The notes under the pieces: generated by a model | Told to the model about the DNA's origin: nothing | The model's database searches: none | What the model saw: the letters and a program-made list of their open reading frames with translations, nothing else | Made by a program: the position numbers and the translations under genes | Part shown: piece by piece, positions 1,578 through 61,498 of the stretch | Layout: every line of letters starts with the position of its first letter | How positions within the stretch are numbered: position 1 is the stretch's first letter | Source: an uncultured Acetatifactor sp. | GTDB lineage: Bacteria > Bacillota > Clostridia > Lachnospirales > Lachnospiraceae | Length of the DNA: 64,000 nucleotides | Direction: 5' to 3' | NCBI GenBank assembly: GCA_947625675.1 | Contig: CANQPH010000003.1 | Span: forward strand, 1-64,000

Positions 1578-3521
1578 TTATTCTTCCGCCTCCGGGCGGG
1601 ATGCTGCCCGCTCTTCCCAATCAGGATGCAGCTCCGGCCCTTCCTCCCCACCCGGACGGGGTGCAGCATGAAAATAATCATAAATCTGCCGGGCCACATG
1701 GAGCGGAATCTCCGGCAATCTCGCCAGTTCTTCTGCGGAAGCGTTCCGGATCTCTTCCATGGAACGGAATCCCCGCATCAAGGCCTTGCGCCTAGCCTGT
1801 CCCACGCCCGGGATCTGATCCAGGGAAGACTGCACCTGAGACTTGCTCCGCAGGGAACGATGATACTCGATAGCGAAGCGATGGGCCTCGTCCTGGATCC
1901 GGGTGATCAGCTTGAAGCCCTCTGAATGGGTGTCCATGGGCAGCTCCACGTTCTGATAATACAGGCCTCTGGTGCGGTGGTTATCATCCTTCACCATGCC
2001 ACAGACCGGGATGTCGATGCCCAGCTCCGCCAGCACCGCCAGAGCGATGTTCACCTGGCCCCGGCCCCCGTCCATGAGCAACAGATCCGGGAACCGGGTG
2101 AAGCTTCCGAACTCTTTCTCCAGATCCTTGGCGGCCAGCTCCCTGCTTTCCTCCATGCCGTGAACGAAGCGTCTGGTGAGCACTTCCTTCATACAGGCGT
2201 AATCGTCCGGCCCGGACACCGTGCGGATCCGGAACTTGCGGTAATCGCTGGGCTTGGGCTTGCCCTTTTCATAGACCACCATGGAACCCACGTTGGCGAA
2301 GCCGCTGATATTGGAAATATCGAAGGCTTCCATGCGGTCGGCCCTGGAAATGCCCAGAAGGGAAGCGATCTCCTTGACCGCACCAATGGTCCGGCCTTCC
2401 TCCCGTTTCAGTTTCTCCCGATCCTGACTCAGGACCAGCTTGGCGTTCTGGGCCGCCAGCTCCACCAATTTTTCCTTGATGCCGATCTTGGGCACCCTGA
2501 TATAGGTCCTGGCCCCCCGTCTGCCGCTGAGCCACTTTTCCAGAAGCTCCGTATCCTCGATCTCGTACTGCAGCATCAGTTCCCTGGGGATAAAAGGGGT
2601 TCCCGCATAAAACTGCTTCACAAAATCTCCCAAGATCTGGGGTTTCGTCCGCCCCGCTATATGGGTCATGTAATAATGCTCCCGGCCGATGAGCTTGCCG
2701 TCCCGGACGAAGAAAACCTGCACCACCGCATCCTCTTCTTCCTGGCAAAGGGCGATCACGTCCTTGTCCTCTCCGTCGCTGTCGGTGATCTTCTGCTTCT
2801 GGGCCACGGACTTCACGCTGTTGTACAGATCCCGGAACCTGGCAGCCTCCTCGAACTCCAGACACTCCGCCGCCTGCAGCATTTTTTCCTCCAGATCTTT
2901 CAAAATGGGGCCATAGTTGCCGCCTAAGAATTCCAGGGCCCCGGCCACCTGCTGCCGGTACTGCTCCTTGGAAATATAGCCCTGGCAGGGCGCCAGGCAT
3001 TGCTTGATATGATAATTCAAGCAGGGGCGGTCCAGACCGATGTCCCGGGGCAGGGAGCGGTTACAGGTTCGCAGCTGGTAAAGCTTGTTCAACAGTTCGA
3101 TGGTATCCTTCACCGCCGCCGCACTGGTATAGGGGCCGAAATATTTGGATTTGTCCTTCTTCATCTGTCTGGAAAACAGGATCCGGGGGTATTCTTCCCC
3201 CAGAGTGACTTTGATATAAGGATAGGTCTTGTCATCCTTCAGGAGAGTATTGTACTTGGGAGAATGCTCCTTGATCAGATTGTTCTCCAGCACCAGGGCC
3301 TCCAGCTCCGAATCGGTGACGATATATTCAAAGCGGGCGATCAGGCTCACCATCTTGTCGATGGCCGGTCCCCGACCGATATTTTCCCGAAAATACGAGC
3401 GGACCCGGTTATGAAGGTTCACGGCCTTGCCCACGTACAAAATCCCGTCCTGGGCGTCCCGCATGATATAGACCCCCGGCTTGCCCGGAAGCTTGCGAAG
3501 CTCTTCTTCTACCTGAAACAT
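1578..3521 (-). CDS. uvrC: Excinuclease ABC subunit C
   Basis: UvrC makes the two incisions flanking a DNA lesion in nucleotide excision repair, acting with UvrA and UvrB in the cytoplasm. At 647 residues it is of normal length. The N-terminal GIY-YIG nuclease (about 13-92, GVYIM and ILYVGKA) cuts 3' of the lesion. A UVR coiled motif for UvrB contact lies near 200-235, the RNase H-like 5' nuclease with EAFDISNI and LLMDGG spans about 385-540, and helix-hairpin-helix DNA-binding motifs end the protein. The last 25 residues are an acidic, proline-rich tail. The start is set by AAAAAGGAGAGGT next to ATG. It is separated from ftsH by a strong terminator. Confidence 0.97.
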
Positions 3522-3628: not shown

Positions 3629-5977
3629 TTAGTCTAAAGGTCTATTGGAAAACCGGCCCACCACCGGCGGATTGCCGGGATCGTCAGCGGACTGGGAACC
3701 CTCCGGGGCACCGGTCTGAGGCTGCGGTGCCTGGGGCGCAGAAGCGTCTTGCGGCAAATGTGCGTCAGCCTGTACGTCCGGCTGGAAAGTCGCCTGGCCG
3801 CCAGGCCCTATCCCTGGCTGGGATGCCTGAGAACCAAGAGCTACGGAGTCCGGCTGAGGCGCAGGAGCACCAGCCTGTGGCTGCGGTGCCTGGGCTGCAG
3901 GAACTTCCTGGGGCCGATGAGAGGCGTTCTGAACATCCAGATGATGGGTATCCGTGGGATCCTTCTCCTCCCGCTTTTCCTCGGGCTCCGGCAGGCCTTT
4001 CTCCCGGCGGAAGATCTGCATGAACTCCTTGCCGGTAATGGTCTCCCGTTCGATCAGGAACTCCGCCAGCTTATCCATCAGCTCCCGATTCTCCCGCAGA
4101 AGCCTCAGGGCCTCGTCATAACTTCTCTTCAGGATGGCGATGACTTCCTGGTCGATTTCGGCCGCCGTCTGGTCGCTGCAGTTTAACGCCGCTCTTCCTT
4201 CCAGGTACTGGCTCTCTATGGTGGCCAGCCCCATGAGGCCGAAGCGCTCGCTCATGCCGTACTGGGTCACCATGGCCTTGGCGATGGAGGTGGCCTTCTC
4301 GATATCGTTGGCGGCGCCCGTGGTCACCGTGTCAAAGACGATTTCCTCGGCGGCCCGGCCCGCCACCAGGCCCACCAGCATATCATTTAATTCTGCCTGG
4401 GTATTCAGATATTTCTCTTCCTCCGGCACGTGCATGACATAGCCCAGCGCACCCATGGTCCTGGGCACGATGGTGATCTTCTGCACCGGCTCGGAATTTG
4501 TCTGCAGGGCGGACACCAGGGCATGCCCCACCTCATGATAAGAAACGATCTTGCGCTCTTCCTTGCTCATGATGCGATCTTTCTTCTCCTTGCCCACCAG
4601 CACCTGCTCCACCGCATTGAACAGATCGGCCTGGCTCACCAACTGACGGCCCTCCTTGATGGCGTTGATGGCGGCCTCGTTGATCATGTTGGCCAGATCG
4701 GAGCCCACCGCACCGCTGGTCGCCAGGGCGATGGCGTCCAGATCCACCGTCTCATCCATCTTCACGTTCTTGGCATGGACCTTCAAAATCTCCACCCGGC
4801 CCTTCAGATCCGGCTTGTCCACGATGATCCGGCGGTCGAACCGTCCGGGACGCAACAGAGCCTTGTCCAGGATTTCAGGCCGGTTGGTGGCGCCGATGAT
4901 CAGGATACCCTTGGAACTGTCGAATCCGTCCATCTCCGAAAGCAGCTGGTTCAGGGTCTGCTCCCGCTCGGAATCTCCTCCGCCGTACCGGGAATCCCGG
5001 CTGCGGCCGATGGCGTCGATCTCGTCTATGAAAATAATGCAGGGCGCATTCTTCGTGGCTTCCTTGAAAAGATCCCGCACCCGGCTGGCGCCCACGCCCA
5101 CGTACAATTCGATAAAGTCGGAACCGGTCAGGGAAAAGAAGGGCACGTTGGCTTCCCCGGCCACCGCTTTGGCCAGCAGGGTCTTGCCGGTGCCGGGAGG
5201 GCCCACCAACAGGGCTCCCTTAGGCAGCCTTGCGCCGATGCTGGAATACCGTCCGGGATTGTGGAGGAAATCCACCACCTCCACCAGGGACTCCTTGGCT
5301 TCGTCCTCCCCCGCCACGTCCTTGAAGGTCACGCCGGTTTCCTTCTGCACGTACACCTTGGCCGTGTTCTTCCCTGCGCTGAAAGGCCCGCCGCTTCCTC
5401 CCATCCTGCGGAACAGGAAGCCCAACAGCACCCACATCAGCAGCACGGGCAGGATGAAGGACAGAATCTGCCAGAAAATGGCGGAACCGTTGGAAGGATT
5501 GTATTCAAAATCCTCCACCCCGTTATCCAACAGACGCTGGGTCAGGGTGGTGACATCTTCCATCACGTAGGTATAATATTCCCTGGTTCTGCCCTGCAGG
5601 CTCATATACAGACTTAAGGGATCCATCTGCTGGCCCTGTTGATTCTGCTGACTGCCGCTCTGTTCGTTTTTCACCGTAAAGGACAGGGACCCGTCCGTAT
5701 TCATCACGGCGCTCTGCACCTTGCCGTCCTCCAGCATGGTGATAAACTCGGCGTAGGTCACCTCTTCCCCGGAATCCGAAGAAAAGAACAGGTTGCTGAA
5801 CAAGATCACCATCATCAACACCGCCAGCCCGGACAGCAGATACACCATCCAGTTGGGCCGGTTGCCGTTTCCGCCATTGTTATTATTGTTGTGTCCGTTA
5901 TTGTTATTATAACCATTGCCGCGGTTATTGTTGTATCCGCCGCCATTGTCGTACTCGTTCATTTGATTGTTATCCAT
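3629..5977 (-). CDS. ftsH: ATP-dependent zinc metalloprotease FtsH
   Basis: Membrane-anchored AAA+ protease that extracts and degrades membrane and short-lived cytosolic proteins as a hexamer. Two membrane helices (about 44-64 and 168-189) flank an extracytoplasmic domain. Walker A GPPGTGKT is at 259-266, Walker B IIFIDEID at 314-321, and the zinc site HEVGH at 481-485. At 782 residues it is longer than the usual 600-700, because of two low-complexity tails: an Asn/Gly-rich cytoplasmic N-terminus (2-40) and a Pro/Gln/Ala-rich C-terminus from about 675 with two copies of an APQPQ-GAP motif. Transcribed alone from a near-perfect promoter. Confidence 0.97.
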   Translation of the reverse strand: MDNNQMNEYDNGGGYNNNRGNGYNNNNGHNNNNNGGNGNRPNWMVYLLSGLAVLMMVILFSNLFFSSDSGEEVTYAEFITMLEDGKVQSAVMNTDGSLSFTVKNEQSGSQQNQQGQQMDPLSLYMSLQGRTREYYTYVMEDVTTLTQRLLDNGVEDFEYNPSNGSAIFWQILSFILPVLLMWVLLGFLFRRMGGSGGPFSAGKNTAKVYVQKETGVTFKDVAGEDEAKESLVEVVDFLHNPGRYSSIGARLPKGALLVGPPGTGKTLLAKAVAGEANVPFFSLTGSDFIELYVGVGASRVRDLFKEATKNAPCIIFIDEIDAIGRSRDSRYGGGDSEREQTLNQLLSEMDGFDSSKGILIIGATNRPEILDKALLRPGRFDRRIIVDKPDLKGRVEILKVHAKNVKMDETVDLDAIALATSGAVGSDLANMINEAAINAIKEGRQLVSQADLFNAVEQVLVGKEKKDRIMSKEERKIVSYHEVGHALVSALQTNSEPVQKITIVPRTMGALGYVMHVPEEEKYLNTQAELNDMLVGLVAGRAAEEIVFDTVTTGAANDIEKATSIAKAMVTQYGMSERFGLMGLATIESQYLEGRAALNCSDQTAAEIDQEVIAILKRSYDEALRLLRENRELMDKLAEFLIERETITGKEFMQIFRREKGLPEPEEKREEKDPTDTHHLDVQNASHRPQEVPAAQAPQPQAGAPAPQPDSVALGSQASQPGIGPGGQATFQPDVQADAHLPQDASAPQAPQPQTGAPEGSQSADDPGNPPVVGRFSNRPLD

Positions 5978-13691: not shown

Positions 13692-13726
13692 CCCAGTACC
13701 CAAGCCCATTCCCCCCCCCCGGCCCC
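13692..13726 (-). other. G-rich tract with G-quadruplex potential after the thioesterase gene
   Basis: On the minus strand: GGGG, a run of ten G, then GGG, GGG and GGG, separated by loops of 2-4 nt. This fits the G3+N1-7 quadruplex rule. It lies about 20 nt past the thioesterase stop, so it would be in the mRNA 3' region. Confidence 0.5.
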
Positions 13727-51808: not shown

Positions 51809-52339
51809 TCAGTCTCCCCAGGACGGGATACTTGGTTCCTCTTCCTGTGCGCTGACCGTGTCCAGGGCGCTGGCAATCAGCTTGATCATTTCCCAAATGG
51901 ACCGAAAATACAGAGTTTTGTTCTTTTCCATCCAGGTGATGCGTCCCTGCCAGCTGCTGTTCTGACGATGCTGTACCTTGATGATAAAAGTTCCAAGATC
52001 TCCATGTTTGCTTAAAAGCTGCTCGTCACTCATAACTTTCAACCTCTCTTGTTTTATCTTTTCCGCCACCCGTCTCTGATTGGCGGTTTCCTTTCCCTCC
52101 GCCCGAAAGCTTCGCTCCCGGAGGGTACGCTGGGGAAAATCAATACTGTCATAGAACTGGTCTAATTCAAAGAGCATCTGATCCATATTGGAAAACGGCA
52201 CGGCGCATTTATCATAAGAATGATAAAAAACCCCTTCCATCCGTTTGTCCCGGATCTTCTCCACACACAGGATCACTCCGTTGGGTGCGCCAATATACCA
52301 TTGTGTCTGATTCACTCGCGCTTCCTCCTTTTTTTCCAT
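51809..52339 (-). CDS. Uncharacterised protein downstream of the BTAD regulator
   Basis: A 176-residue soluble protein I cannot assign. It has an N-terminal alpha/beta part (QTQWYIGAPNGVILCVEKI, GVFYHSYDK), a charged coiled region (about 75-110) and a C-terminal segment (SWQGRITWMEKNKTLYFRSIWEMIKLIASALD) that could form a small beta-helix module. No signal peptide or membrane helix. It starts 6 bp after the regulator gene ends, so it is almost certainly co-expressed and may modulate the regulator or be a target-locus adaptor. Confidence 0.7.
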   Translation of the reverse strand: MEKKEEARVNQTQWYIGAPNGVILCVEKIRDKRMEGVFYHSYDKCAVPFSNMDQMLFELDQFYDSIDFPQRTLRERSFRAEGKETANQRRVAEKIKQERLKVMSDEQLLSKHGDLGTFIIKVQHRQNSSWQGRITWMEKNKTLYFRSIWEMIKLIASALDTVSAQEEEPSIPSWGD

Positions 52340-52345
52340 GCGCCA

Positions 52346-53563
52346 TCATCGGACATCAAAGGGACGAAGCGCATCGCTCACATAATACTGGATCCTGGTA
52401 CGCTGCCTGCCTCTGATAAATTGACTGTTAATCCGTTTCTGAATAACCTTGCAGCCTTCCCTGGTGACGTTGGTCAGGAGAATCAAATACTGTCCCTTTC
52501 CATAACAATTCACGGCGTCGCCATGGCGGACTGATTTCAAAATAGCCTGTTCCAACCGTTCGGAAAGCTCGTCCAGCATGGAACCTCCCCGCATGGGGTT
52601 CCCCTTGCAGTCCACCACGGTGCACAGCATCAGATAGACCGACTGGCCGCCTCTCTCCAGCATCCGTTCCAGGAGCTGATAAATCCCCTGAAACACGGGA
52701 TAGGTACAAAGAAATCCTCCCGAACCTCCCCCTTCCTCTCCGCATTCTTCGGACAATTCGGTCTGGATCTCTTCCAGAGTGGAGTGTCTGTGCTGGATCT
52801 GTTCCCCCAACTTCTGGTAAAAAGAGGTGAATTGTTTGGAAGGTTTCAGTCCCTGTTGTTGAAAATAATAGTCCACGGTATCCTCGTAGAACCTTTGGGC
52901 TTCCTCGAAACGGCCCTCGGCGACCATGGCTTCCATGGTGATGACCTCCCAATCCGCCAGGGGCTGGATCTGGGACGCATACAGTCCCAACTCTCTCATC
53001 CTTTCGAAATCCCCGGAACGCCGCAGGAGAATATGGGCGGATTCCACGCATTCGCAGAACCTCTCCCGATACCTTCTGGCTTCCTGGGCCACCCAGATCA
53101 TCCCGCTCTGCATGGGCAGGAACTCTCCTTTGTAAACCTGGCAGGCCTCTAAAAACAGCTCCCTTTTCCGATCCGGATCTTCTTCCTCGTTCGCCCGGGC
53201 ACAAAGACTCTCGAACCAGTCCCCGTCTTCCGTCACAGGGATCTGATCGGTCCAATAAATCACTCCCTTGCGCTGTTTAAAGTAATCCATTTCCGGCAAT
53301 CCCATTTTTCTCAAGCTTTTCTTGGCGTTGTAGAGAACGCTCTGCAAGGTATGATGGACGTTGGCAAGCTCCTTGTCCCCGAAGAGATACTCTTCCACCT
53401 TGCCCTTCTCGATCCCGGTACGCCGATAGTGCAGGATGATCTGCATCAGGTAGATAAACTGGGACTCTCTGGATTTCTTGTCGCTCAGCAGGGATTTTCC
53501 ATTCCATTCCAGGGAAAAATTCCCCAGGGTATTCATATGCAATTCATTCTCCAGGACATCCAC
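52346..53563 (-). CDS. BTAD-domain (SARP-like) regulator with degenerate GGDEF-like tail
   Basis: A regulator of about 405 residues: N-terminal winged helix (LGNFSLEWNGKSLLSDKKSR), a bacterial transcriptional activation domain of TPR-like helices (about 110-255, WFESLCARANEEEDPDRKRELFLEAC), and a C-terminal domain (about 300-400) with the helix-strand pattern of a GGDEF/cyclase fold but no GG(D/E)EF. The coding frame opens at GTG 53563, or better at ATG 53536 (GGAG 12 nt before). The strongest start signal, AGGAGG then ATG at 53573, is out of frame because of a nine-G run. It lies 25 bp after the signal-peptidase gene, so it likely controls the fibre operon. Confidence 0.82.
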   Translation of the reverse strand: MDVLENELHMNTLGNFSLEWNGKSLLSDKKSRESQFIYLMQIILHYRRTGIEKGKVEEYLFGDKELANVHHTLQSVLYNAKKSLRKMGLPEMDYFKQRKGVIYWTDQIPVTEDGDWFESLCARANEEEDPDRKRELFLEACQVYKGEFLPMQSGMIWVAQEARRYRERFCECVESAHILLRRSGDFERMRELGLYASQIQPLADWEVITMEAMVAEGRFEEAQRFYEDTVDYYFQQQGLKPSKQFTSFYQKLGEQIQHRHSTLEEIQTELSEECGEEGGGSGGFLCTYPVFQGIYQLLERMLERGGQSVYLMLCTVVDCKGNPMRGGSMLDELSERLEQAILKSVRHGDAVNCYGKGQYLILLTNVTREGCKVIQKRINSQFIRGRQRTRIQYYVSDALRPFDVR

Positions 53564-53571
53564 CCCCCCCC
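53563..53571 (-). repeat. Homopolymeric G9 tract at the start of the BTAD regulator gene
   Basis: The minus strand reads AGGAGG, nine bases, ATG (53573-53571), then the G run continues to 53563 before TGGATG. With nine G the ATG frame ends after nine codons at TGA 53546-53544. With eight G it joins the regulator frame as Met-Gly-Gly-Val-Asp. This is the layout of a slipped-strand phase-variation switch, or of a homopolymer sequencing error. Confidence 0.6.
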
Positions 53572-53588
53572 ATATAACCTTTCCTCCT

Positions 53589-54116
53589 TTACCCGTCCGT
53601 CCTTCTCCTGGAACGCAGCACGCTGGCCAGAAGGTTCAGCATTACCCCGGAAGCCGCAAAGCAAATCACGTAAAGCTTCCCGATGTCGTTGGTAAACAAA
53701 AACAACAGCCGTCCCAACACCGGAACGTGATACGTCACCCTCCCGATCACATCCCCATAGGGCACCGCATTCAGATCCTCTCCCGCATTGGCGTCCCCCT
53801 TGGTGGTCAGCTCTCCCTCCACCCTGTTGTTGCGCACCAGGCGGTGGCTGACCACGGAATTGCCGCTGCGAAAGGCGATTACCTCCCCTTCCGGCAGATC
53901 CTCGGGTTCCGCATGCTCCACGTATAGGAGACTTCCCACGGGGATCGCCGGTTCCATGCTCCCGCTCACCACGCTGTAGATCTCATAGCCCAGGAAGCGG
54001 GGAACCGTCACGGGCAGGGCGCAAAGGATCACGGACAACAGGATCAGCGTTCCCAGCAGATTGCAGAGGAAGGGAACGAAGCCGCCGGTTTTGCCGCTTT
54101 TCCGTCCCTTACTCAT
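53589..54116 (-). CDS. SipW-type signal peptidase I
   Basis: A 175-residue membrane-bound signal peptidase of the ER-like (SipW) class. A first membrane helix (about 18-38) leads to VVSGSMEP with nucleophile Ser53. The general base is histidine, in VVSHRLV (His91), rather than the lysine of ordinary SPase I. TKGDAN (106-110) and a second membrane helix near the C-terminus complete the fold. SipW enzymes mature TasA-like fibre proteins with distinctive signal peptides. At least two such proteins are encoded upstream (56101-57006 and 57044-57580). It overlaps the preceding gene by 8 bp. Confidence 0.92.
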   Translation of the reverse strand: MSKGRKSGKTGGFVPFLCNLLGTLILLSVILCALPVTVPRFLGYEIYSVVSGSMEPAIPVGSLLYVEHAEPEDLPEGEVIAFRSGNSVVSHRLVRNNRVEGELTTKGDANAGEDLNAVPYGDVIGRVTYHVPVLGRLLFLFTNDIGKLYVICFAASGVMLNLLASVLRSRRRTDG

Positions 54117-55221
54117 CCTTTTTCTTTTCCCGCTTCCTTCCGAATTTCAAGAGCAGGAAGAACCCCGTCAGGATGCATCCGGCGGAAATCGCCGCCACCA
54201 CCGCATTGGCCGCCAGATTTATCCGCACCGCGTCATTGCCTATCTGGAGAGGCCTGTCACTTTGTCCCGGCACAATCCCTCCCGCCTGGGGCACCTGCTG
54301 ATCGTCAATGTCCAGGTATTCGTCAGGGCCCAAAGGCGTGTCATTCTCGTCGATTTCCACGTCGTCAGGATTGGCATCCTGGCCGCCGGGCTGGGCTTCC
54401 CCGCCTGCGCCCCCCGCATCGTCAAAGTTGGTGCCGCCCTGATCGATCACTCCGGTCCCAGGCTGGCCTTCTCCAGCCTGCTGGCCTTCCCCGCCAGGCT
54501 GCGCTTCCCCGCCGGGCGGGTTTCCTTCCGTCCCCCCGGGCTGAACCGTCCCGGGCTGTGCGGGAGCTGCCGGAGTCTGAATCCTGGTGTATTCGAAATT
54601 GATCTCATTGCTCTCGCCCTTGACCAGAGTCTTTCCAATATTGTAGGCCTGCGGCTGGTACCCTTCGATATACAGATAGGCCACCACCGCCTTGTCGCCG
54701 GCGTTGCCATAGTAGGTGCGGCTGGGCGCCAGCTCTGCGCCGGTTCCCGCTTCCACGTAATTGACCTGATAGGATACCAGGTCGCCGCTGATCCCATAGG
54801 CCACCACGAAATCCTGGTCCTCGGTCACGGTAAAAGCGTTCAGGGACACGGTGCTGTTGTCCATGCCGCTTTCCCGGATGCCCTTGACATAATACTTGCT
54901 CCCGTCAGAGGGTTCCGCCATCTCCTGATAGAAAATCAGCGTATCGCCCCTCATCAGGCCTTCATATACCAGCACCTCGCCCTTTCCGTCGGGATCCACT
55001 CCCCGGATCTGGGTCAGGGCCCCGTCCCGGATCACGTTCAGGGTATCGCCGTTATGGATCGAACCCTGCTTACCGGCATAAAATCTCACCGTGTATGTGT
55101 ACCCTTCTGCCCGGGCCTCCAGACCGCAGTTCACCATCATGCCCAGAACCAGGCAAAGAGCGCAGGCCAGGGCCAGGCATCTGGCGCCAATGGGAAAAAA
55201 TCGCTGCTTCCAAGGTCTCAT
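54109..55221 (-). CDS. Surface protein with MucBP-like domain and Pro/Gly-rich stalk
   Basis: A 370-residue exported protein. A signal peptide (about 1-38) is followed by beta-rich modules; the second (about 150-210, VSYQVNYVEAGTGAEL to GYQPQAYNIGKTLVKGESNEINFEYT) looks like a MucBP-type repeat. A Gly/Pro/Gln-rich stalk (about 215-325) and a C-terminal membrane helix with a Lys/Arg-rich tail follow. No LPxTG-like motif is seen before the helix, so it is probably membrane-anchored. Overlaps its neighbours on both sides, so translationally coupled in the fibre operon. Confidence 0.75.
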   Translation of the reverse strand: MRPWKQRFFPIGARCLALACALCLVLGMMVNCGLEARAEGYTYTVRFYAGKQGSIHNGDTLNVIRDGALTQIRGVDPDGKGEVLVYEGLMRGDTLIFYQEMAEPSDGSKYYVKGIRESGMDNSTVSLNAFTVTEDQDFVVAYGISGDLVSYQVNYVEAGTGAELAPSRTYYGNAGDKAVVAYLYIEGYQPQAYNIGKTLVKGESNEINFEYTRIQTPAAPAQPGTVQPGGTEGNPPGGEAQPGGEGQQAGEGQPGTGVIDQGGTNFDDAGGAGGEAQPGGQDANPDDVEIDENDTPLGPDEYLDIDDQQVPQAGGIVPGQSDRPLQIGNDAVRINLAANAVVAAISAGCILTGFFLLLKFGRKREKKKDE

Positions 55222-56087
55222 TCTTTCCCCTCCTTCCGATTTCTCCTAAGGTTCACCAGGGCGAAAGCCATAAGCGTCGCCCCGGCAACGGTCAAGCCGA
55301 TCAAAAGCGGCAGGGGCAGGCTCTCGTCTCCGGTCTGCACCGGTGCGATATGGGATTCCACGGCGGCAGAGCTGGGCGAAGAAGGCGAAGGAGTCTCCGA
55401 CGGCGTCGTCGTATTCGTGGTCGAAGCCGGCGCATTTCGGGAGAGCTCCACCGCAAAATTCATTTGCAGCTGCGCCCAGGTGTCCTGATAAGCGTTGCCC
55501 TGCGTCTCCCCGTCCAAGGATACCTGGAGAGTGACGGAGCCGCTTTCTCCTTTTTCAAGGGTATCCAAATAGAAATAATTCTCCAGACTGTCCGTGGCCT
55601 CGTGCAGACCCTCTCCGGCGTTTTCAATATCTTCCTCCGATTGTTCGCCGCCCACCGTGTCGCTGGAAAAAAGAGTGTTGACCACACCGTCCTTGTCCGT
55701 GTAATCCAGGATGTAGGTATAAGCGCCCCCTGCGGCGCCCGCATTATCCACGCTCTCTTCCAGGGAAGAAAGCACCTCGTTGGTCATGTACCAATCCGTG
55801 GCGGAATCGTTCTCATTTTTCAGATTCACCACAATGACCGCAGTATCGCCGGGCTGCAGGCCCGTGACCACATCTACCAAATCCTGGGTTTTGAAATTGC
55901 TGTCCAGGACAGGATTCTCTCCTGCCGTGAACGTCACCGTCCAATCCGACCCGCCATAAGAGGTCTCGGCCCGGGCCGTCAGGACCCCCGGCTTCCAGGA
56001 CAACCCTGCCGCAAGCGCCAGGCAGAGGGCGGCCAGGCTCAAGAGCGGTGTTTTCGTCCACCCCAGATCACATTTCATCTTCCTCAT
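55218..56087 (-). CDS. Surface protein with PVQTGD-type sorting signal
   Basis: A 289-residue exported protein: signal peptide (about 1-40), a beta-sandwich fibre-like domain (WTVTFTAGENPVLDSNF, GLQPGDTAVIVVNLKN), a Thr/Ser/Pro-rich stalk (about 220-245), then PVQTGDE, a hydrophobic helix and the basic tail RRNRKEGKE. This is a sortase-type C-terminal anchor, although the motif is a variant of LPxTG. The domain pattern is like camelysin/TasA-style proteins. It overlaps the MucBP-like gene by 4 bp. Confidence 0.75.
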   Translation of the reverse strand: MRKMKCDLGWTKTPLLSLAALCLALAAGLSWKPGVLTARAETSYGGSDWTVTFTAGENPVLDSNFKTQDLVDVVTGLQPGDTAVIVVNLKNENDSATDWYMTNEVLSSLEESVDNAGAAGGAYTYILDYTDKDGVVNTLFSSDTVGGEQSEEDIENAGEGLHEATDSLENYFYLDTLEKGESGSVTLQVSLDGETQGNAYQDTWAQLQMNFAVELSRNAPASTTNTTTPSETPSPSSPSSAAVESHIAPVQTGDESLPLPLLIGLTVAGATLMAFALVNLRRNRKEGKE

Positions 56088-56100
56088 TCCCGCAACCTCC

Positions 56101-57006
56101 TTACTGCGCCCCGTCGAGCAGCCGCAACGTGCCGTCTTCCACGGCGACTTTCTGGCCCCAGGCGCTCAGGATGGCGTCCGGCGCATTATGCTCCTGCACC
56201 GCATCCACCCGCACCTCCAGCTGGAACCGAGTCCCATCGTACTGATAAGCGGTGGTAATCGTCGTCCTGCCGCCCTCCTTGCGGATCTCCTGGCTCACCC
56301 GTCTGGCGGCTTCCCCGTCAATGGTCAGCGTGTCCGCAAAAGGCTCCGTCACGCAAGGGCCCGCCTCTTCCGGATCCTCTTCCCCGGGCGTCCTGTAAAC
56401 CAGGCCGCTGTAGTAGAGCACGGTTCGCTCATCGGTGGAAGACGCCTTATCCAGCAGCCAGCCATTGTTCACGCCGGTGGCATCACAGAGCAGATGCAGA
56501 TCGATCAGGGCGGGATCCAGATCCTGGGAATCCTTCTCCCCGTCCCCTTCTCCCTTGACGTAGGTCACCGTGCCGTCGCTTGCCGTCTTTTTCACCATCC
56601 AATATTTATAAATGCTGACCCGGACGTATTGATTGATGGTGCCGGTGTTCCGCACCGTCAGGACCTCCGGGTAAACCTGGCCGACCTTCAGCTCCTCGCC
56701 CTCGGCCAACATGCCGCTCAGCAGGACGCCGGTACGCTCGTCCCAGGTGCCGTCCCTGTTTTCCTTGTCATAATTTCTCCAGGCGACGGGTGACCCGTTT
56801 TCCTCCAAGGTCACGCCGATGTCATCCATCTGAATCTGCGACGCATAGGTGGAGCTGTTGTAGGTCAAAGCGGCCCTCGCCCCGCCGATGGAACTGGACA
56901 GGAGCAGCGCTACCGCCAGGAGGAACAGACCTGCGGTTCCCACCGGGGAGCAAAAGATTTTTTTCAGCTTTCCTCCGATTCCATTATGCTTTGTTTCCTT
57001 CTTCAT
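56101..57006 (-). CDS. TasA-like protein with SipW-type signal peptide
   Basis: A 301-residue secreted protein. After a basic N-terminus (1-17) the signal helix (about 22-45) ends GARAALTYNSSTYAS, a layout typical of SipW-cleaved substrates. The mature part is beta-rich with EVLTVRNTGTINQYVRVSIYKYW, as in fibre-forming proteins of the TasA/CalY group. There is no sorting signal and no C-terminal helix, so it would be released or polymerise. The gene is in the same operon as the SipW-type peptidase. Confidence 0.78.
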   Translation of the reverse strand: MKKETKHNGIGGKLKKIFCSPVGTAGLFLLAVALLLSSSIGGARAALTYNSSTYASQIQMDDIGVTLEENGSPVAWRNYDKENRDGTWDERTGVLLSGMLAEGEELKVGQVYPEVLTVRNTGTINQYVRVSIYKYWMVKKTASDGTVTYVKGEGDGEKDSQDLDPALIDLHLLCDATGVNNGWLLDKASSTDERTVLYYSGLVYRTPGEEDPEEAGPCVTEPFADTLTIDGEAARRVSQEIRKEGGRTTITTAYQYDGTRFQLEVRVDAVQEHNAPDAILSAWGQKVAVEDGTLRLLDGAQ

Positions 57007-57043
57007 CGCCCGTCACCTCCCGTCACCGCACTTTTTTCCTTCC

Positions 57044-57580
57044 TCATTGGACACCTCCCGTCACCAGGGGCGCCGACCATATCTCGGGATTCGGCTCTCC
57101 CTGCAGCAAAGAGGCCAGGGGCGTTCCGTCCGCACCGTATCGAACCGGTGCGCTCTCATAGATCACCACCACGTTGAAGCTGTCCCCGTCCTCCAGTTCT
57201 TCGTCCGCCGGGATGCCCTGAATCCTGACGAGCAGCTCTTCCGCAGTCTCTCCGCCGTTCAGGATATCGCCATAGTAATAGTAACCGTCCCCGCCCGGCT
57301 CCCATTTGCCGCTTTCGCTGGAGTACTCCAGGAGATAGTCGCCGCCGCAAAACGCTTTCGCCCGAATATAGACGGGCTGGGAACCCGGTTCGCTGACAAT
57401 CGACACATGCTTGGTCCAGTCATAGAAATCTTCCTCTATTTCCGTCCAGTCTCCCAGTTCCAGATTCTGTCCGCCCTGGGCCTCCGCATAGGTGGTAAAA
57501 TAAGCCCAGGCGACTCCCGTGCCGGACCCGATCGCCACCACCGCCGCAAGGGCTGCCAGAACAACGCCAATCTTCTTCAT
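57044..57580 (-). CDS. Small secreted protein with SipW-type signal peptide
   Basis: A 178-residue protein with a clear SipW-type leader: MKKIGVVLAALAAVVAIGSG then GVAWAYFTTYAEAQG. The start at 57580 is set by AGGAGG 9 nt upstream. The mature part is beta-sandwich-like (KHVSIVSEPGSQPVYIRAKAF) and resembles TasA-family subunits. No sorting signal. Likely a minor or anchoring subunit of the SipW-dependent fibre. Confidence 0.82.
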   Translation of the reverse strand: MKKIGVVLAALAAVVAIGSGTGVAWAYFTTYAEAQGGQNLELGDWTEIEEDFYDWTKHVSIVSEPGSQPVYIRAKAFCGGDYLLEYSSESGKWEPGGDGYYYYGDILNGGETAEELLVRIQGIPADEELEDGDSFNVVVIYESAPVRYGADGTPLASLLQGEPNPEIWSAPLVTGGVQ

Positions 57581-57597
57581 CCGATGGCCCTCCTTAC

Positions 57598-58740
57598 TCA
57601 CTGCCTGGTCCAGCTCCAGCCGGACTCTTCCTCGTATTCAAAATGGTTCTGGATGCCGCTTCCGCTGCGATCCTCCCAAGTGTATTCGTTCTCAAAGGAC
57701 ACGGAGACCACCTGATCCGCCGCAATCACCGCACTCCGGACCCCCTCCGCCGTCAGTTCATAGGAGGAACCGGAATACACCTCCGTCACCGTCACCTCGG
57801 CCCCCACGGGTATCCCCTCGATCAGGAGGGACTGGCTTCCCGCATCGGAGAAGGTCAGCGCCGCCACGTCGCTGTACACCCTCTCTCCGTCCAGCATGGC
57901 TTCGATGGAAAAAACGAAGGTCGCCTTTTCTCTTTCCCCGTGTCCCCCCAAAGACTCGTGAGCAAGCAAGGTCTTCACAATTTCCAGGGAGCCGAGACGG
58001 AGCTCCCGGGACGGCTTCAGGGAAATCCCCATCTCATAAAGCCATTCACCGGAATTCGCACTGCTCACGACGCCGTCCTCCGCTTCCTTGGAAGGAAGGG
58101 CCACCAATTCCGGCCGGAAGGTATAAAGATATTCCTCGGAATGGGCAACCGTGAAAATCTGTTCCCGGGCGCTTTCCGGGTCAGCGTCCTCGGCCGCACC
58201 CTCCGTTTCCTCCGCCGGAACCGTGATCACGTAGTCTTCCGCTTCCGCATCCCGGGCGATGATCAGGTACAAACCGGCCGACAGGAGTTCTCCGGAATCC
58301 AGGTGCGCTTCCTCCCCGGGCTGAAGCCCTCGTACCACCGGTTCCACCCCTTTCTCCAACAGGGCGATCCTGGCCGCCTCCTGGGCCAGGACATTCCAGG
58401 TCTGGTCGTCCGTCTCTTCCGGAAGGGTCAATCCTGCGAAATCCTCCCGCACTGCGAAACGATAGGCATCGTAACCGCTCTCTTCCACCGCATCCGCAAT
58501 CTGATACAGATCGAACACCACATGGTTCCCGTCCCCGCCCGTCAAATCCTGGGTAAATTCTTCGCTGCCGGGGCGAATCTTCAAAGAGCAGCCTTTCTCC
58601 AGATCCACCGCTTGCGCCGTCATGGAAAAGGTCTGCACCATCGCCCCAATCGTCAGTGCCAATGTCAATGCCAGCGCCAGGGCACGGCGCTCCCTATGAT
58701 TCACAGCCCCGCCCCTCCGGCTCAAATCACTTTTTCGCAT
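57598..58740 (-). CDS. Minor pilin-like protein (Cna-B/DUF7601-type), no sorting signal
   Basis: A protein of about 380 residues. The signal peptide (about 15-43, ending TAQA) is followed by a DLYQIAD-containing beta domain that resembles the N-terminal pilin domain, and a C-terminal Cna-B-like module (SLEIVKTLLAHES ... ATFVFSIEAMLDGE ... EVTVTEVYSGSSYEL). The protein stops at WSWTRQ without LPxTG, membrane helix or basic tail, which is odd for a sortase pilin. ATG 58740 is preferred over 58746 because AGGAGG is then 8 nt away. Perhaps a secreted adaptor between the sortase pilus and the TasA-like fibre. Confidence 0.75.
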   Translation of the reverse strand: MRKSDLSRRGGAVNHRERRALALALTLALTIGAMVQTFSMTAQAVDLEKGCSLKIRPGSEEFTQDLTGGDGNHVVFDLYQIADAVEESGYDAYRFAVREDFAGLTLPEETDDQTWNVLAQEAARIALLEKGVEPVVRGLQPGEEAHLDSGELLSAGLYLIIARDAEAEDYVITVPAEETEGAAEDADPESAREQIFTVAHSEEYLYTFRPELVALPSKEAEDGVVSSANSGEWLYEMGISLKPSRELRLGSLEIVKTLLAHESLGGHGEREKATFVFSIEAMLDGERVYSDVAALTFSDAGSQSLLIEGIPVGAEVTVTEVYSGSSYELTAEGVRSAVIAADQVVSVSFENEYTWEDRSGSGIQNHFEYEEESGWSWTRQ

Positions 58741-58762
58741 AAGCATTTCCTCCTCATAGACT

Positions 58763-59644
58763 CTACTTGTCTTCCATCCCTTTGCGGAACTCTTCCACCA
58801 ATCGCCTCTGATCCCGTCGGACGGGCTTGAAGCTGTAATAAATCAGCATTATGGCAAGCACCACAAACAACAGGGGGATCCCCACTGCGGGCATCACCAG
58901 ATAGGAAGGGATCCGCACCGCTTCGTTGACGACTGCCGCCGCCTCTCTGATGTTTTCTATTCTGGTTCCCCGGACCAGGATCCGGTGGGTATTGACCCCA
59001 TAGGGGGTACAAGTGATCAGCGTGCAGTAATCCTTCCCCTTCTCGATGGACAGTTCGGAGACCTCGTAAGGGAGCACGATCCGGATCTGGTCCACCATGT
59101 ACGTCACCACCTGGCCCAATATGGTTATGGTAAAAATATCTCCTTCCACCACTTTGTCCAGATCGGTGAACAATCTGGCGGAGGGCAGGCCCCGATGGCC
59201 GGAAATGGCGGCATGGGTGCTTTCTCCCCCGATGGGAAGGGACGTCCCCTCCAGGTGCCCTGCGGCAATCTGGAGGACCGCTTCGTCCGTCCCATGGTAA
59301 ATGGGAAGGTTCACATCGATGGCCGGGATCTGAATATATCCCATGACGCCGGTCCCCGTAGGATCCAGCAGACTGTTATATTCTTCCAGCTCCTCCTGGG
59401 ACAGTTCAAACTTCACGCCTTCCAGGGCCAGCTTCTCGTTGTATTTTTCTGCCGCCTCCAGCAGAGCGTTTCCCTCTTCCCCGGAAATGTTCTCCACCGC
59501 TTCCACGTAAGAAGCGATGGCCCTGGACTGGTGCATGGAATTCCACCAGTCGCTGACGGTAGGATACAACAGTAGGCAAAGCCCTGCGCATAAGATCAGG
59601 AGCAACACAATCGTCGTCCAATGCTTTTTGAGAAATTTCTTCAT
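58763..59644 (-). CDS. srtC: Class C sortase (pilin polymerase)
   Basis: A 293-residue membrane transpeptidase linking pilin subunits through LPxTG and a pilin lysine. An N-terminal helix (about 9-28) is followed by a region with the lid-like DPTGTG, catalytic His150 (ISGHRG), Cys212 (TLITCTP) and Arg221 (THRILVRG), then a C-terminal helix and basic tail. That two-helix layout is class C. The start at 59644 follows AGGGAG 9 nt upstream; the longer frame to 59719 overlaps the upstream hairpin. It is immediately downstream of the major pilin. Confidence 0.94.
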   Translation of the reverse strand: MKKFLKKHWTTIVLLLILCAGLCLLLYPTVSDWWNSMHQSRAIASYVEAVENISGEEGNALLEAAEKYNEKLALEGVKFELSQEELEEYNSLLDPTGTGVMGYIQIPAIDVNLPIYHGTDEAVLQIAAGHLEGTSLPIGGESTHAAISGHRGLPSARLFTDLDKVVEGDIFTITILGQVVTYMVDQIRIVLPYEVSELSIEKGKDYCTLITCTPYGVNTHRILVRGTRIENIREAAAVVNEAVRIPSYLVMPAVGIPLLFVVLAIMLIYYSFKPVRRDQRRLVEEFRKGMEDK

Positions 59645-59704
59645 TTCAGGACACTCCCTACCAATGTATACTAATTCCTGATTGTTTTCAGGTTCCTCAC
59701 CGCA

Positions 59705-59734
59705 CCGGCCCCTCCCCACAGGGAGGGGAGCCGG
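59705..59734 (-). promoter_or_regulatory. GC-rich hairpin between major pilin and sortase genes
   Basis: CCGGCCCCTCCC (59705-59716) pairs with GGGAGGGGAGCCGG (59721-59734), with a small second hairpin (CGGCG/CGCC) beside it. There is no T run. It could stabilise the pilin transcript and reduce sortase expression. Confidence 0.6.
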
Positions 59735-59791: not shown

Positions 59792-61498
59792 TTAAGATTC
59801 CTTGCTCATGCGCTTCTTGGTCACCAGCAGGACAATGGCTCCCAGCACCAGGATGCTGCCCACCACGTAGAAAATCGTAGTGCCGATGCCGCCAGTCTCG
59901 GGAAGGGTGACGCCCCTGTGGTTCACAATGATGTTCTCGGTGACAGAATCGTCTCCGTTGTCACTGTTCGTCATCGTTATATCAGTATACGCCGCCTTTT
60001 GGTTTTCACCAGTCGTCTCACTATGTGTCGCCTCGATCGTCACCGTAATGCCAGCAGTCGCCAGTCTATTATATCCGGCAGGAGCCTCCGTCTCCACCAA
60101 GGTATAGGTTCCGGCATCCAAGCCCCGAACGTCAAATCTGCCATCGCTTCCGGATACCAAAACCTGAGTGGCACCCTTGGTTCCTTCGGTCGCCAGGGAA
60201 TAATATGTAATCTGATTCCCATTCTCATCCGTATCTGACTTTTCTACAAACCAAAGAACCATATTGCCGTTCTTTAAATTAAACTTCGCTCCGGCCAGGG
60301 CGGGATGGGTTCCATCCTGCTCTTCCACGTCTCCATCCACCTTCTGATTCTTCATCTCATAGGTGAACACATAGACCGTATCTTCCGTCGCCCGTCCCAT
60401 ATCCGTAGAGACATTGGGATTGTTGGAATATTCCAAATACACCTTGTTGGTATTGACATCTACGTCGCCAACCACTGCGTCCTCCGTCAGTTGGGCGTCA
60501 TAGGTGATTTCTATCGTAACTCCCTTGGTGATATCGCAGAATTCCTTCAGGTCGTTAAAGGTTACGTCAAACGTGGTGATGCCAGTCTCCTCATTCGTAA
60601 CCGGCTCAGAAACCACATAGTAATTTTCTTCCACCTGTTTATTTTTCTGAAGAACACCCTGCAGATCCGTATAAGTGGCGGTCACATTCATGTTCCCCAG
60701 GTAGTCTATTCCCTTGGCAATGGTATCGTGGAACACCATCTTATAAGTATCGTAATACTTGAAACCGGGATCCTCAGGCAGCTCACCGATCAGTTTAAAC
60801 TGGAAAGTCTCATACAGATCGTGATCCGCCGTCTCTCCCCAGCCATCCACTGCACCCGCTTCCGCATTATTTCCCTCGTCCTGCACTTGCTTATCAACCG
60901 TAGGAACCTGGGTCTTAACCACCGCTTTCGCATCTTCATCCAATACGCTCAAGATAAATTTGGTATAGGCTTCGCCCTCTCCCACTGATTGATCCGCATC
61001 TTTAATGAAGTAATAACCGGAAGTCAGGCCAGAAATGGTGTAGGTATATTTTCCATTCACCACTTCCGGAGCAGTATCATTCACTTTTTTTGACGTCGAT
61101 TTCAAATGATCCGCAATGATTTGTGCAAATAACTCGGCGTTATCGTGATCATCTTCCAATCCATTCAGTTTGCTGGCCACGCCATAGGCAGTTACGGGTT
61201 CTGAATCTGGAATTGCGAACAAAACCCTTAATTGCCCCAACAATGTATCATTTACTTCAATGCCGTCGCCCCAATCGATGTTTACCAATACGGACTTCCC
61301 CTCCAGCGTAGACACCTCGCCACTGAAAATCTGATAGGCTTCATACTGATAGCCATCGCCCGGAACATTGGAGATCGTGACCTTCAAATCCGTTTTCTTC
61401 TCCGATGTTCCCGCCTCCGCTGCCATCGCCGTCATTCCCATGGCCATTACCATGACCACCGCCAGCAGCAAGCTGGCTAACTTTTTCATCTTCTTCAT
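59792..61498 (-). CDS. Major pilin subunit, isopeptide-forming, LPETG-anchored
   Basis: A 568-residue SpaH/EbpB-like fimbrial shaft protein. A signal peptide (about 1-27) precedes an N-terminal domain. VPTVDKQVQDE (about 185-195) probably carries the pilin lysine joined by the sortase. Fimbrial isopeptide domains follow, with E-box TYTLVETEAPAGYN near the C-terminus, then LPETGGIG, a hydrophobic helix and the tail TKKRMSKES. Its polymerisation by the adjacent class C sortase is the standard mechanism. It lies downstream of the putative tip pilin, separated by a triple hairpin. Confidence 0.93.
   Translation of the reverse strand: MKKMKKLASLLLAVVMVMAMGMTAMAAEAGTSEKKTDLKVTISNVPGDGYQYEAYQIFSGEVSTLEGKSVLVNIDWGDGIEVNDTLLGQLRVLFAIPDSEPVTAYGVASKLNGLEDDHDNAELFAQIIADHLKSTSKKVNDTAPEVVNGKYTYTISGLTSGYYFIKDADQSVGEGEAYTKFILSVLDEDAKAVVKTQVPTVDKQVQDEGNNAEAGAVDGWGETADHDLYETFQFKLIGELPEDPGFKYYDTYKMVFHDTIAKGIDYLGNMNVTATYTDLQGVLQKNKQVEENYYVVSEPVTNEETGITTFDVTFNDLKEFCDITKGVTIEITYDAQLTEDAVVGDVDVNTNKVYLEYSNNPNVSTDMGRATEDTVYVFTYEMKNQKVDGDVEEQDGTHPALAGAKFNLKNGNMVLWFVEKSDTDENGNQITYYSLATEGTKGATQVLVSGSDGRFDVRGLDAGTYTLVETEAPAGYNRLATAGITVTIEATHSETTGENQKAAYTDITMTNSDNGDDSVTENIIVNHRGVTLPETGGIGTTIFYVVGSILVLGAIVLLVTKKRMSKES

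What the first reader, a model, noticed from the sequence alone, without database searches (positions are those of the whole stretch)
53536..53590. Poly-G tract placed like an on/off switch at the start of the pilus-linked BTAD regulator
AGGAGG followed after nine bases by ATG (53573) is the best start signal for this gene, but nine G make it out of frame, giving a nine-codon peptide ending at TGA 53544. Eight (or eleven) G would put that ATG in frame with the regulator. A second start, ATG 53536, lies 8 nt after the TGA and could give low-level translation by reinitiation. Homopolymer slippage at regulators of surface structures is the classic contingency-locus design. I know of no description of it for a BTAD regulator of a clostridial pilus.
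Basis: partly seen in the sequence, partly recalled or inferred. Interest (0 to 1): 0.78.

Follow-up and report, generated by a model that had tools for sequence, protein, structure and literature searches.

The report
Poly-G frame switch in pilus regulator
In a bacterium related to gut Lachnospiraceae, the regulator gene near the end of a pilus operon begins with a run of nine Gs that leaves its strongest start codon out of frame, so slippage of that run would likely turn the regulator up or down; three related regulator genes in two sister species change frame exactly at G runs of their own.

Summary
In detail: AGGAGG, nine bases, ATG 53573 and G9 (53571-53563) open a nine-codon ORF, and the regulator frame is one base out. 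This AGGAGG is the strongest ribosome site there; in 33 other loci no site that strong serves only an out-of-frame ATG. One G fewer would give a 10-residue extension, the commonest in 119 homologues. Against: relative L037 has a stretch of the same length without a long run, its ATG equally out of frame (but with no Shine-Dalgarno). The gene belongs to a conserved sortase-pilus/SipW operon, present in three copies here; only this copy has the tract. In the genus, 6 of 7 runs of 8 or more G around 60 BTAD domains lie in the gene. Three other BTAD genes change frame exactly at a run; for one, the aligned run in a relative is G7 and in frame. Length variation of this tract is untested: no close strain was found and there are no reads. 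Precedents: Bifidobacterium breve pilin G-tracts, bvgS, inlA. A probable contingency locus, a new variant of a known kind.

The parts
53563..53571 (-). G9 tract; its first G is the third base of ATG 53573
   Evidence: the only run of 9 or more in the window besides 13711-13720
53583..53588 (-). AGGAGG Shine-Dalgarno, 9 nt before ATG 53573; duplex with anti-SD -10.7 kcal/mol, the strongest of the candidate starts
53544..53573 (-). Leader ORF of nine codons (MGGGGCPGE, then TGA) opened by ATG 53573 while the tract is G9
53561..53563 (-). GTG, first possible start codon of the regulator frame in the G9 state; its only SD-like partner is the G run itself (-7.3 at spacing 3, -4.3 at spacing 4 or more)
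53533..53559 (-). Second out-of-frame ORF: ATG 53559 with the G run as possible SD (-9.7, spacing 4), 8 codons, TGA overlapping ATG 53536
   Evidence: ATG and SD; codons read
53540..53542 (-). TTG start, one base after the leader stop; GGAG 53549-53552 six bases upstream; start of predicted protein P0001
53534..53536 (-). ATG start, seven bases after the leader stop; a protein from here lacks residue Leu 8
52346..53563 (-). Regulator: winged-helix + BTAD + degenerate GGDEF-like C-terminal domain (AfsR/EmbR-like fold plus GGDEF fold)
   Evidence: Pfam BTAD 2.6e-9, GGDEF 1.2e-4 below its cut-off; Foldseek AfsR 3.9e-10, EmbR 1.9e-8, GGDEF domains
53589..54116 (-). SipW-type signal peptidase I gene, directly upstream; its stop codon abuts the regulator's Shine-Dalgarno region
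   Evidence: TIGR02228 5.9e-23
54109..57601 (-). Four predicted secreted proteins of the operon (54109-55221, 55218-56087, 56101-57006, 57044-57601); two resemble SipW-dependent matrix proteins weakly
   Evidence: TIGR04090 6e-4 and 3e-5, below cut-off
57598..58746 (-). Predicted secreted protein with DUF5979 domain, probable accessory pilin
58763..59719 (-). Class C (pilin) sortase
   Evidence: NF033745 4.3e-82
59792..61498 (-). LPXTG major pilin (isopeptide/SpaA domains)
51809..52339 (-). Conserved gene after the regulator, unknown function, part of the conserved order

Best explanation
The nine-G run overlaps the strongest start codon of the pilus-operon regulator and leaves that codon one base out of frame, so replication slippage at the run would likely act as a contingency switch that sets how much regulator, and through it probably how much pilus, a cell line makes. 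Shown by sequence: in the assembled (G9) state the strongest start, ATG 53573, makes a nine-codon peptide, and the regulator frame is open but one base out. Supported by comparison, not settled: ATG 53573 is the intended start, because its Shine-Dalgarno is among the best in the family and one G fewer gives the commonest N-terminal length. Inferred: G9 is a low state. Ribosomes that finish the leader could restart at TTG 53542 (one base on) or ATG 53536, giving a shortened or weakly made protein. One G fewer would be the full state. One G more would end the leader at a TGA overlapping ATG 53536, another coupled low state. Also inferred: the regulator acts on its own operon, because it keeps its place there in relatives. 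Untested: that tract length really varies in the population. Supporting this at family level, other BTAD regulators of the genus carry G runs inside the gene more often than chance, and three change frame exactly at such a run.
For: Arrangement. SD energies: ATG 53573 -10.7, GTG 53563 -7.3, TTG 53542 and ATG 53536 -6.4. In 33 other homologous loci (40-61% identity) the best in-frame site has median -7.15, and the 2 loci with an out-of-frame ATG at -9 or better (L038, L040) use the same SD for an in-frame ATG. In 119 homologous proteins, with starts as called by the sources, the extension before the core residue aligned to Leu 8 has median 9; 83 of 119 have 8-10 and 36 have 10. ATG 53573 with one G fewer gives 10, GTG 53563 7, TTG 53542 0, ATG 53536 -2; 5 of 119 are at or below 1 and 5 have exactly 7. 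Leu 8 is invariant in 32 aligned sequences: the window and 31 of the 119 that I picked, none with the shortest called starts. The gene order from secreted proteins through SipW to BTAD was found in 15 of 16 distinct loci, including two further full copies in the same genome. Family level: of 7 runs of 8 or more G in 294 kb around 60 BTAD domains of the genus, 6 lie in BTAD footprints that make up 75 kb; without the window it is 5 of 6, binomial P 0.005. In G023, 3 of its 4 runs of 8 or more are at BTAD genes. Frame change exactly at the run: G023:C27 G10, G023:C146 G8, G535:C9 G8. At the last, relative G496:C127 has G7 in frame and G497:C118 G8 in frame.
Against: No length variation was seen at this tract: the predicted protein stands alone in its 90% cluster and the next relative is 61% identical. 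Relative L037 (56%) has ATG 31 nt before the core residue, out of frame in the same phase and with the same spacing as the window, with only five G and no SD there (-0.4); its likely in-frame start is a GTG. So the present length matches at least one relative without slippage, and the run could have grown by substitution. Nearer relatives (L034, L007, L093, L100) show no comparable stretch. In the operon copies examined no other regulator start has a run of 8 or more G. SD-ATG-G8+ is not enriched in the genus, 13 against 17 reversed. In 30 loci with runs of 9 or more G (31 tracts) no frame change was called and 19 of 31 looked non-coding on both sides. Two BTAD genes of the genus carry runs of 8 in frame. 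The regulator departs from otherwise invariant positions at 5 of 89, the most of 32 sequences, others 0 to 3, which could mean relaxed constraint. The family statistics were framed after seeing the data; in the eight-genome count all three non-window cases are in G023, and its C146 tract is 26 bases from a contig end. Pilus control by this regulator rests on gene neighbourhood alone.
Confidence: 0.52

Rival explanations
1. The tract is a fixed leader feature, not a switch. G9 is the normal state, translation starts at TTG 53542 by coupling to the nine-codon leader (or at ATG 53536), and run length does not vary meaningfully.
For: The stop and TTG are one base apart, GGAG stands six bases before TTG, and the gene caller picked TTG. 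The ORF is intact over 405 codons. L037 has the same ATG-to-core spacing.
Against: These starts give extensions of 0 and -2 residues where 113 of 119 homologues have 5 or more, and both lose Leu 8, invariant in the 32 sequences aligned.
Confidence: 0.19
2. The G run itself serves as the Shine-Dalgarno for GTG 53563, and its length only tunes spacing or strength.
For: GTG gives a 7-residue extension, within the family range (5 of 119 have 7). L037 has GTG at the same place and a likely GTG start two codons on, served by its five G (-8.4). Duplex energy of the window's run before GTG is -7.3 at spacing 3. In relatives runs of 6-8 G stand 2-4 bases before the ATG of BTAD genes: G023:C18, G527:C146 and G527:C25.
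Against: The run abuts GTG, so spacing is short (energy only -4.3 at spacing 4 or more), and the stronger AGGAGG-ATG pair just upstream would compete. The window lacks L037's second GTG (it reads GTC).
Confidence: 0.14
3. Recent loss of function: a single slippage has inactivated this copy, the cell keeps two other intact pilus operons, and the gene is starting to decay.
For: Two other full operon copies in the genome. Most deviations from invariant positions among 32 sequences, 5 of 89.
Against: No stop or second frameshift in 405 codons. A run of nine G is itself prone to change again, so the loss would not be permanent.
Confidence: 0.08
4. Assembly or sequencing error, or an unresolved mixture: the true major allele has another length.
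For: G runs are error-prone; the B. breve study found annotated lengths that differed from the true populations (PMC9187656, passages read).
Against: The genome is in 101 contigs, which suggests short reads, where an 8-9 base run is usually called correctly (general knowledge). The cases in relatives come from other assemblies.
Confidence: 0.05

Closest known systems
Bifidobacterium breve UCC2003 sortase-pilus G-tracts bbr_0113 and bbr_1889 (PMC9187656; abstract, sections 15 and 21 and passages read)
   Same: Gut commensal, sortase-dependent pilus, intragenic G run, upstream ORF out of frame with the main ORF; run length decides whether the full product is made; lengths vary within a culture.
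   Different: There the run is in the first pilin gene and breaks the structural subunit; here it is at the start of a transcriptional regulator near the far end of the operon, in a Clostridia lineage, with possible internal restarts. Variation is shown there, not here.
Listeria monocytogenes inlA 5' poly(A) tract (PMC2831843; abstract and section list read)
   Same: Homopolymer close to the start codon; frameshift gives a truncated 8-aa peptide; high-frequency variation measured.
   Different: Poly(A), and the gene is a surface protein, not a regulator.
Bordetella pertussis bvgS poly-C tract (PMC1891110; passages read)
   Same: Homopolymer slippage in a regulator of surface and other virulence genes (C6 full length, C7 truncated).
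   Different: Sensor kinase, tract inside the coding region, unrelated protein family.
SARP/BTAD regulators AfsR and EmbR
   Same: Predicted fold of the regulator's first two domains matches both.
   Different: The regulator here has a degenerate GGDEF-like C-terminal domain and sits in a pilus operon.

Membership tests
Homopolymer contingency locus (phase variation by slippage) | Long homopolymer in the coding or leader region of the gene | tested here: met
   G9 overlapping the strongest start codon
Homopolymer contingency locus (phase variation by slippage) | Change of run length changes the reading frame or start used | tested here: met
   Follows from the sequence by reading codons; translation itself not measured
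Homopolymer contingency locus (phase variation by slippage) | Run length differs between strains or within a population | not testable with these tools
   No relative above 61% protein identity found and no reads. For another BTAD gene of the genus, aligned G7 (in frame) and G8 (out of frame) relatives were found
Homopolymer contingency locus (phase variation by slippage) | Switching is reversible and changes a phenotype | not testable with these tools
   Needs cultures
Homopolymer contingency locus (phase variation by slippage) | Tract conserved at that place in related genes (supporting, not required) | tested here: not met
   No other operon copy examined has it at the start; tracts in related BTAD genes are at other places
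BTAD (SARP-type, AfsR/EmbR-like) transcriptional regulator | BTAD domain above the curated cut-off | tested here: met
   38 bits against 22.1
BTAD (SARP-type, AfsR/EmbR-like) transcriptional regulator | N-terminal winged-helix DNA-binding domain | tested here: inconclusive
   No Pfam hit for it in the window protein; the predicted structure matches AfsR and EmbR over about 255-383 columns; a G023 relative scores just below the Trans_reg_C cut-off
Active GGDEF diguanylate cyclase | Intact GG(D/E)EF motif and family score above cut-off | tested here: not met
   22.3 bits against cut-off 23.8; by my reading the place of the motif holds YGKGQY
Sortase-dependent pilus operon | Pilin-class sortase with LPXTG major pilin | tested here: met
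   NF033745 4.3e-82; LPXTG anchor and RrgB-type isopeptide domain

The most novel reading that the evidence does not exclude
BTAD regulators of surface-structure operons in this Lachnospiraceae genus are a recurrent class of poly-G contingency loci: G runs have arisen independently at the start codon, near the start of the BTAD domain, in the BTAD-GGDEF linker and at the GGDEF-like domain, switching the regulator instead of the pilin, so that a cell with three pilus operons can set each one's regulator separately.
Probability: 0.4. Interest if true: 0.74.

Novelty: new variant of a known kind. Interest (0 to 1): 0.58.

Why it matters
If true, a group of gut Clostridia uses slippage switching, best known from Campylobacter, Neisseria and Bifidobacterium, at the level of a regulator of sortase pili and SipW-secreted proteins. 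It would make pilus heterogeneity in uncultured Lachnospiraceae readable directly from metagenomic reads, and it gives a defined gene family (BTAD plus GGDEF-like regulators) in which to look for frame-broken but otherwise intact copies. It also warns that a gene caller can pick a downstream TTG and hide such a switch.

Tried and rejected
A reading of my own that I withdrew: I first took L037 as starting MGNVDV, in line with the window read one G shorter. Recounting showed five G there. Its ATG is out of frame and its spacing equals the window's G9 state. That evidence now stands against the switch, and confidence went from 0.6 to 0.52; the GTG and fixed-leader rivals went up by 0.04 and 0.02, and the novel case went from 0.42 to 0.40. 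I also dropped L034 and L007 as support for ATG 53573: their likelier start is a second ATG with a 9-residue extension.

A general rule that SD-ATG-poly-G is used as a start switch in the genus: rejected, 13 matches against 17 for the reversed control in 138 genomes; none of the other 12 is clearly at a start.

A general rule that long G runs in this genus are switches: not supported. In 30 loci with runs of 9 or more G (one per genome, 31 tracts) a codon-usage screen called no frame change and 2 in-frame coding cases. In 30 of the 54 tracts of 8 or more G in seven relatives it called 3 frame changes: L166, L168 and the BTAD gene G023:C27. The same screen called the G023:C146 tract in frame, because only 26 bases follow it; direct reading shows that the conserved YLCTYPVF lies in the other frame. 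In the window its 'frame change' is just the step from the SipW gene to the regulator, so it is no evidence.

The tract as a conserved feature of the operon: rejected.

Sister strains: none found. Transcriptional slippage at G9 was considered; nothing here tests it.

Papers: nine searches. 'BTAD' with 'pilus', 'regulator' and 'Lachnospiraceae' gave 0 papers; 'BTAD' with 'phase variation' gave 12, and the 8 listed look, from titles and DOIs, like chance matches ('btad702') or unrelated work. The library lacks most subscription journals.

Full report
What is there. On the minus strand the regulator's start region reads AGGAGG (53588-53583), nine bases, ATG 53573, with nine G in a row at 53571-53563 counting the ATG's own G. 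In this register ATG 53573 opens nine codons (MGGGGCPGE) and stops at TGA 53546-53544. The regulator frame is open from GTG 53563 for 405 codons.

Chance. The genome (G000, 3.1 Mb, 101 contigs) has only 20 runs of 7 or more G: ten of 7, three of 8, three of 9, three of 10, one of 11. The window alone has 13 runs of exactly 6 and 106 of exactly 5, G or C. So long G runs are avoided, and those that exist are flat in length. One of seven runs of 9 or more in the whole genome sitting on the start of a regulator is unusual, but the arrangement is not a habit of the genus: 13 matches to SD, ATG and 8 G in 138 genomes against 17 for the reversed pattern.

The gene and its neighbours. The regulator has a BTAD domain (Pfam 2.6e-9) and a GGDEF-like C-terminal part below the Pfam cut-off. 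A predicted structure (mean pLDDT 77) matches AfsR (3.9e-10) and EmbR (1.9e-8), and separately GGDEF domains. Upstream in the same direction are a SipW-type signal peptidase, four predicted secreted proteins, a DUF5979 protein, a class C sortase and an LPXTG pilin. I examined 17 loci, two of which (L034 and L151) are the same contig. In 15 of the 16 distinct ones the secreted proteins and SipW precede the BTAD gene; the sortase was found in the 8 loci whose sequence reached that far (L148, L149, L151, L152, L153, L155, L156, L157). Two full copies besides the window's lie in the same genome on contigs 15 and 33. The exception is the more distant C37 gene. Control of the pilus by the regulator is inferred from this linkage only.

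Which start is meant. ATG 53573 has the best anti-SD pairing, -10.7 kcal/mol, against -7.3 for GTG 53563 and -6.4 for TTG 53542 and ATG 53536. In 33 other loci of 40-61% identity the best in-frame site has median -7.15, and no site of -9 or better serves only an out-of-frame ATG; the two that serve one (L038, L040) also serve an in-frame ATG. In 119 homologous proteins the stretch before the core residue aligned to Leu 8 has median length 9; 83 of 119 have 8 to 10, and 36 have 10 (starts as called by the sources). ATG 53573 with one G fewer gives 10, GTG 53563 gives 7 (5 of 119), TTG 53542 gives 0 and ATG 53536 gives -2. Leu 8 is invariant in 32 aligned sequences, 31 of which I picked from the 119, and opens the first predicted strand.

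The result that cuts the other way is L037, a relative (56%) in the same operon context. Its ATG also lies 31 nt before the core residue, out of frame in the same phase, with five G where the window has nine, and the two stretches align without a gap. It has no Shine-Dalgarno before that ATG (-0.4), and its likely start is a GTG. So the window's present length need not be a slipped one, and a GTG start is a real rival. The nearer relatives L034, L007, L093 and L100 have no comparable stretch and do not decide it.

How it probably works. With G9 most ribosomes would start at ATG 53573 and stop after nine codons. Some would restart at TTG 53542 or ATG 53536, or start at GTG 53563, and give regulator at low level (inferred). 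With one G fewer the strong start would be in frame and give the full protein. With one G more the leader would end at a TGA that overlaps ATG 53536 (read), another coupled low state. So the likely output is high or low, not strictly on or off. That slippage really happens here is not shown.

Evidence from relatives. No strain close enough to compare this tract was found: the protein is alone in its 90% cluster, and the next is 61% identical. At family level the result is stronger. A Pfam BTAD search of 138 genomes of the genus gave 60 places in 31 genomes. I took 294 kb around all 60. It holds 7 runs of 8 or more G; 6 of the 7 lie within BTAD footprints (gene plus 60 nt of leader) that make up 75 kb, all with G on the coding strand. 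Leaving the window out, 5 of 6 gives a binomial P of 0.005. In G023, which has only four such runs in 2.4 Mb, three are at BTAD genes: in the leader (C18), in a gene next to a serine-rich repeat protein (C27, G10; not found by the Pfam search, so not among the 60), and in the linker of the pilus-operon BTAD gene (C146, G8). The gene at the fourth run was not identified. At C27 and C146 the frame changes exactly at the run while the conserved sequence goes on in another frame. In G535:C9 a BTAD gene (77-79% identical before the run and 82-86% after it to two intact relatives) changes frame at a G8 run; the aligned place is G7 in frame in G496:C127 and G8 in frame in G497:C118. For eight genomes with complete counts, 0.07 runs were expected in BTAD genes and 4 seen; without the window gene 3 seen, all in G023, Poisson P about 4e-5 (1.25 kb per gene, C27 included). 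These tests were framed after seeing the data.

Results against. None of the other operon copies examined has the run at the start. In 30 sampled loci with runs of 9 or more G no frame change was called. Two BTAD genes of the genus with runs of 8 (G497:C118, G014:C110) are in frame. The window's regulator deviates at 5 of 89 otherwise invariant positions, the most among 32 sequences. A contig end lies 26 bases from the C146 run.

What is known. Poly-G slippage that switches sortase pili is published for Bifidobacterium breve, with the run in the first pilin gene (PMC9187656; abstract, sections 15 and 21 and passages read). A 5' homopolymer whose frameshift leaves an 8-residue peptide is published for inlA (PMC2831843, abstract read), and a homopolymer switch in a regulator for bvgS (PMC1891110, passages read). 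I found no paper on such a switch in a BTAD regulator or in Lachnospiraceae (an open-licence library, capped listings). The mechanism is therefore known; its place, a BTAD regulator of a clostridial pilus operon, looks new.

Verdict. Observation confirmed; interpretation partly supported. A probable contingency locus, confidence 0.52, with read-level length variation as the missing proof.

Noticed in passing
G535:C9 (L249, tract from base 2486): BTAD regulator that changes frame at a G8 run; relatives G496:C127 (G7) and G497:C118 (G8) are in frame at the aligned place.
   Followed up: yes
G023:C27 (L188, + strand 3887-3896): BTAD-type regulator that changes frame at a G10 run, next to a very long serine-rich repeat protein.
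   Followed up: yes
L107 (G503:C44), L108 (G505:C33), L166 (G527:C382), L168 (G033:C2): ORFs that change frame exactly at a run of 8-9 G: a protein mannosyltransferase (Pfam), a large protein that reads like a secreted surface protein (no Pfam match), a sensor histidine kinase and a family 2 glycosyltransferase piece (Pfam). These are the usual kinds of contingency gene.
   Followed up: partly
G000:C13:57695-57705 (L052): G11 between TTGACA and TAGAAT (spacer 21 nt) upstream of a gene whose product, by my reading, has a lipoprotein-like start: looks like a promoter whose spacer length could vary.
   Followed up: no
G000:C13:12260-12267 (L051): G8 where a 198-codon ORF gives way to a 408-codon ORF in another frame, both membrane-protein-like by reading; possibly one split gene. 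No Pfam match and weak codon signal.
   Followed up: partly
window 13711-13720: Second long run in the window, G10 on the minus strand, about 24 bases after the end of a 247-codon ORF on that strand.
   Followed up: no
G000:C100:26969-26978 (L060): Ten-base run at the last codons of an NAD-dependent epimerase gene, so length changes would alter its C-terminus.
   Followed up: no
G000 contigs 3, 15 and 33: Three full, diverged copies of the same pilus/SipW/BTAD operon in one genome.
   Followed up: partly
L037 (start region, about bases 2985-3025): Same ATG-to-core spacing as the window and the same GTGGATGT, with five G and no Shine-Dalgarno before the ATG: either chance or a shared older layout.
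   Followed up: partly
G506, G543, G547, G465: These genomes carry 16-27 runs of 9 or more G each, while 59 of the 138 genomes in the genus carry none.
   Followed up: no
window 51809-52339: Conserved gene of unknown function after the BTAD regulator, found in 13 of 15 distinct operon loci; in the other two the contig ends first.
   Followed up: no
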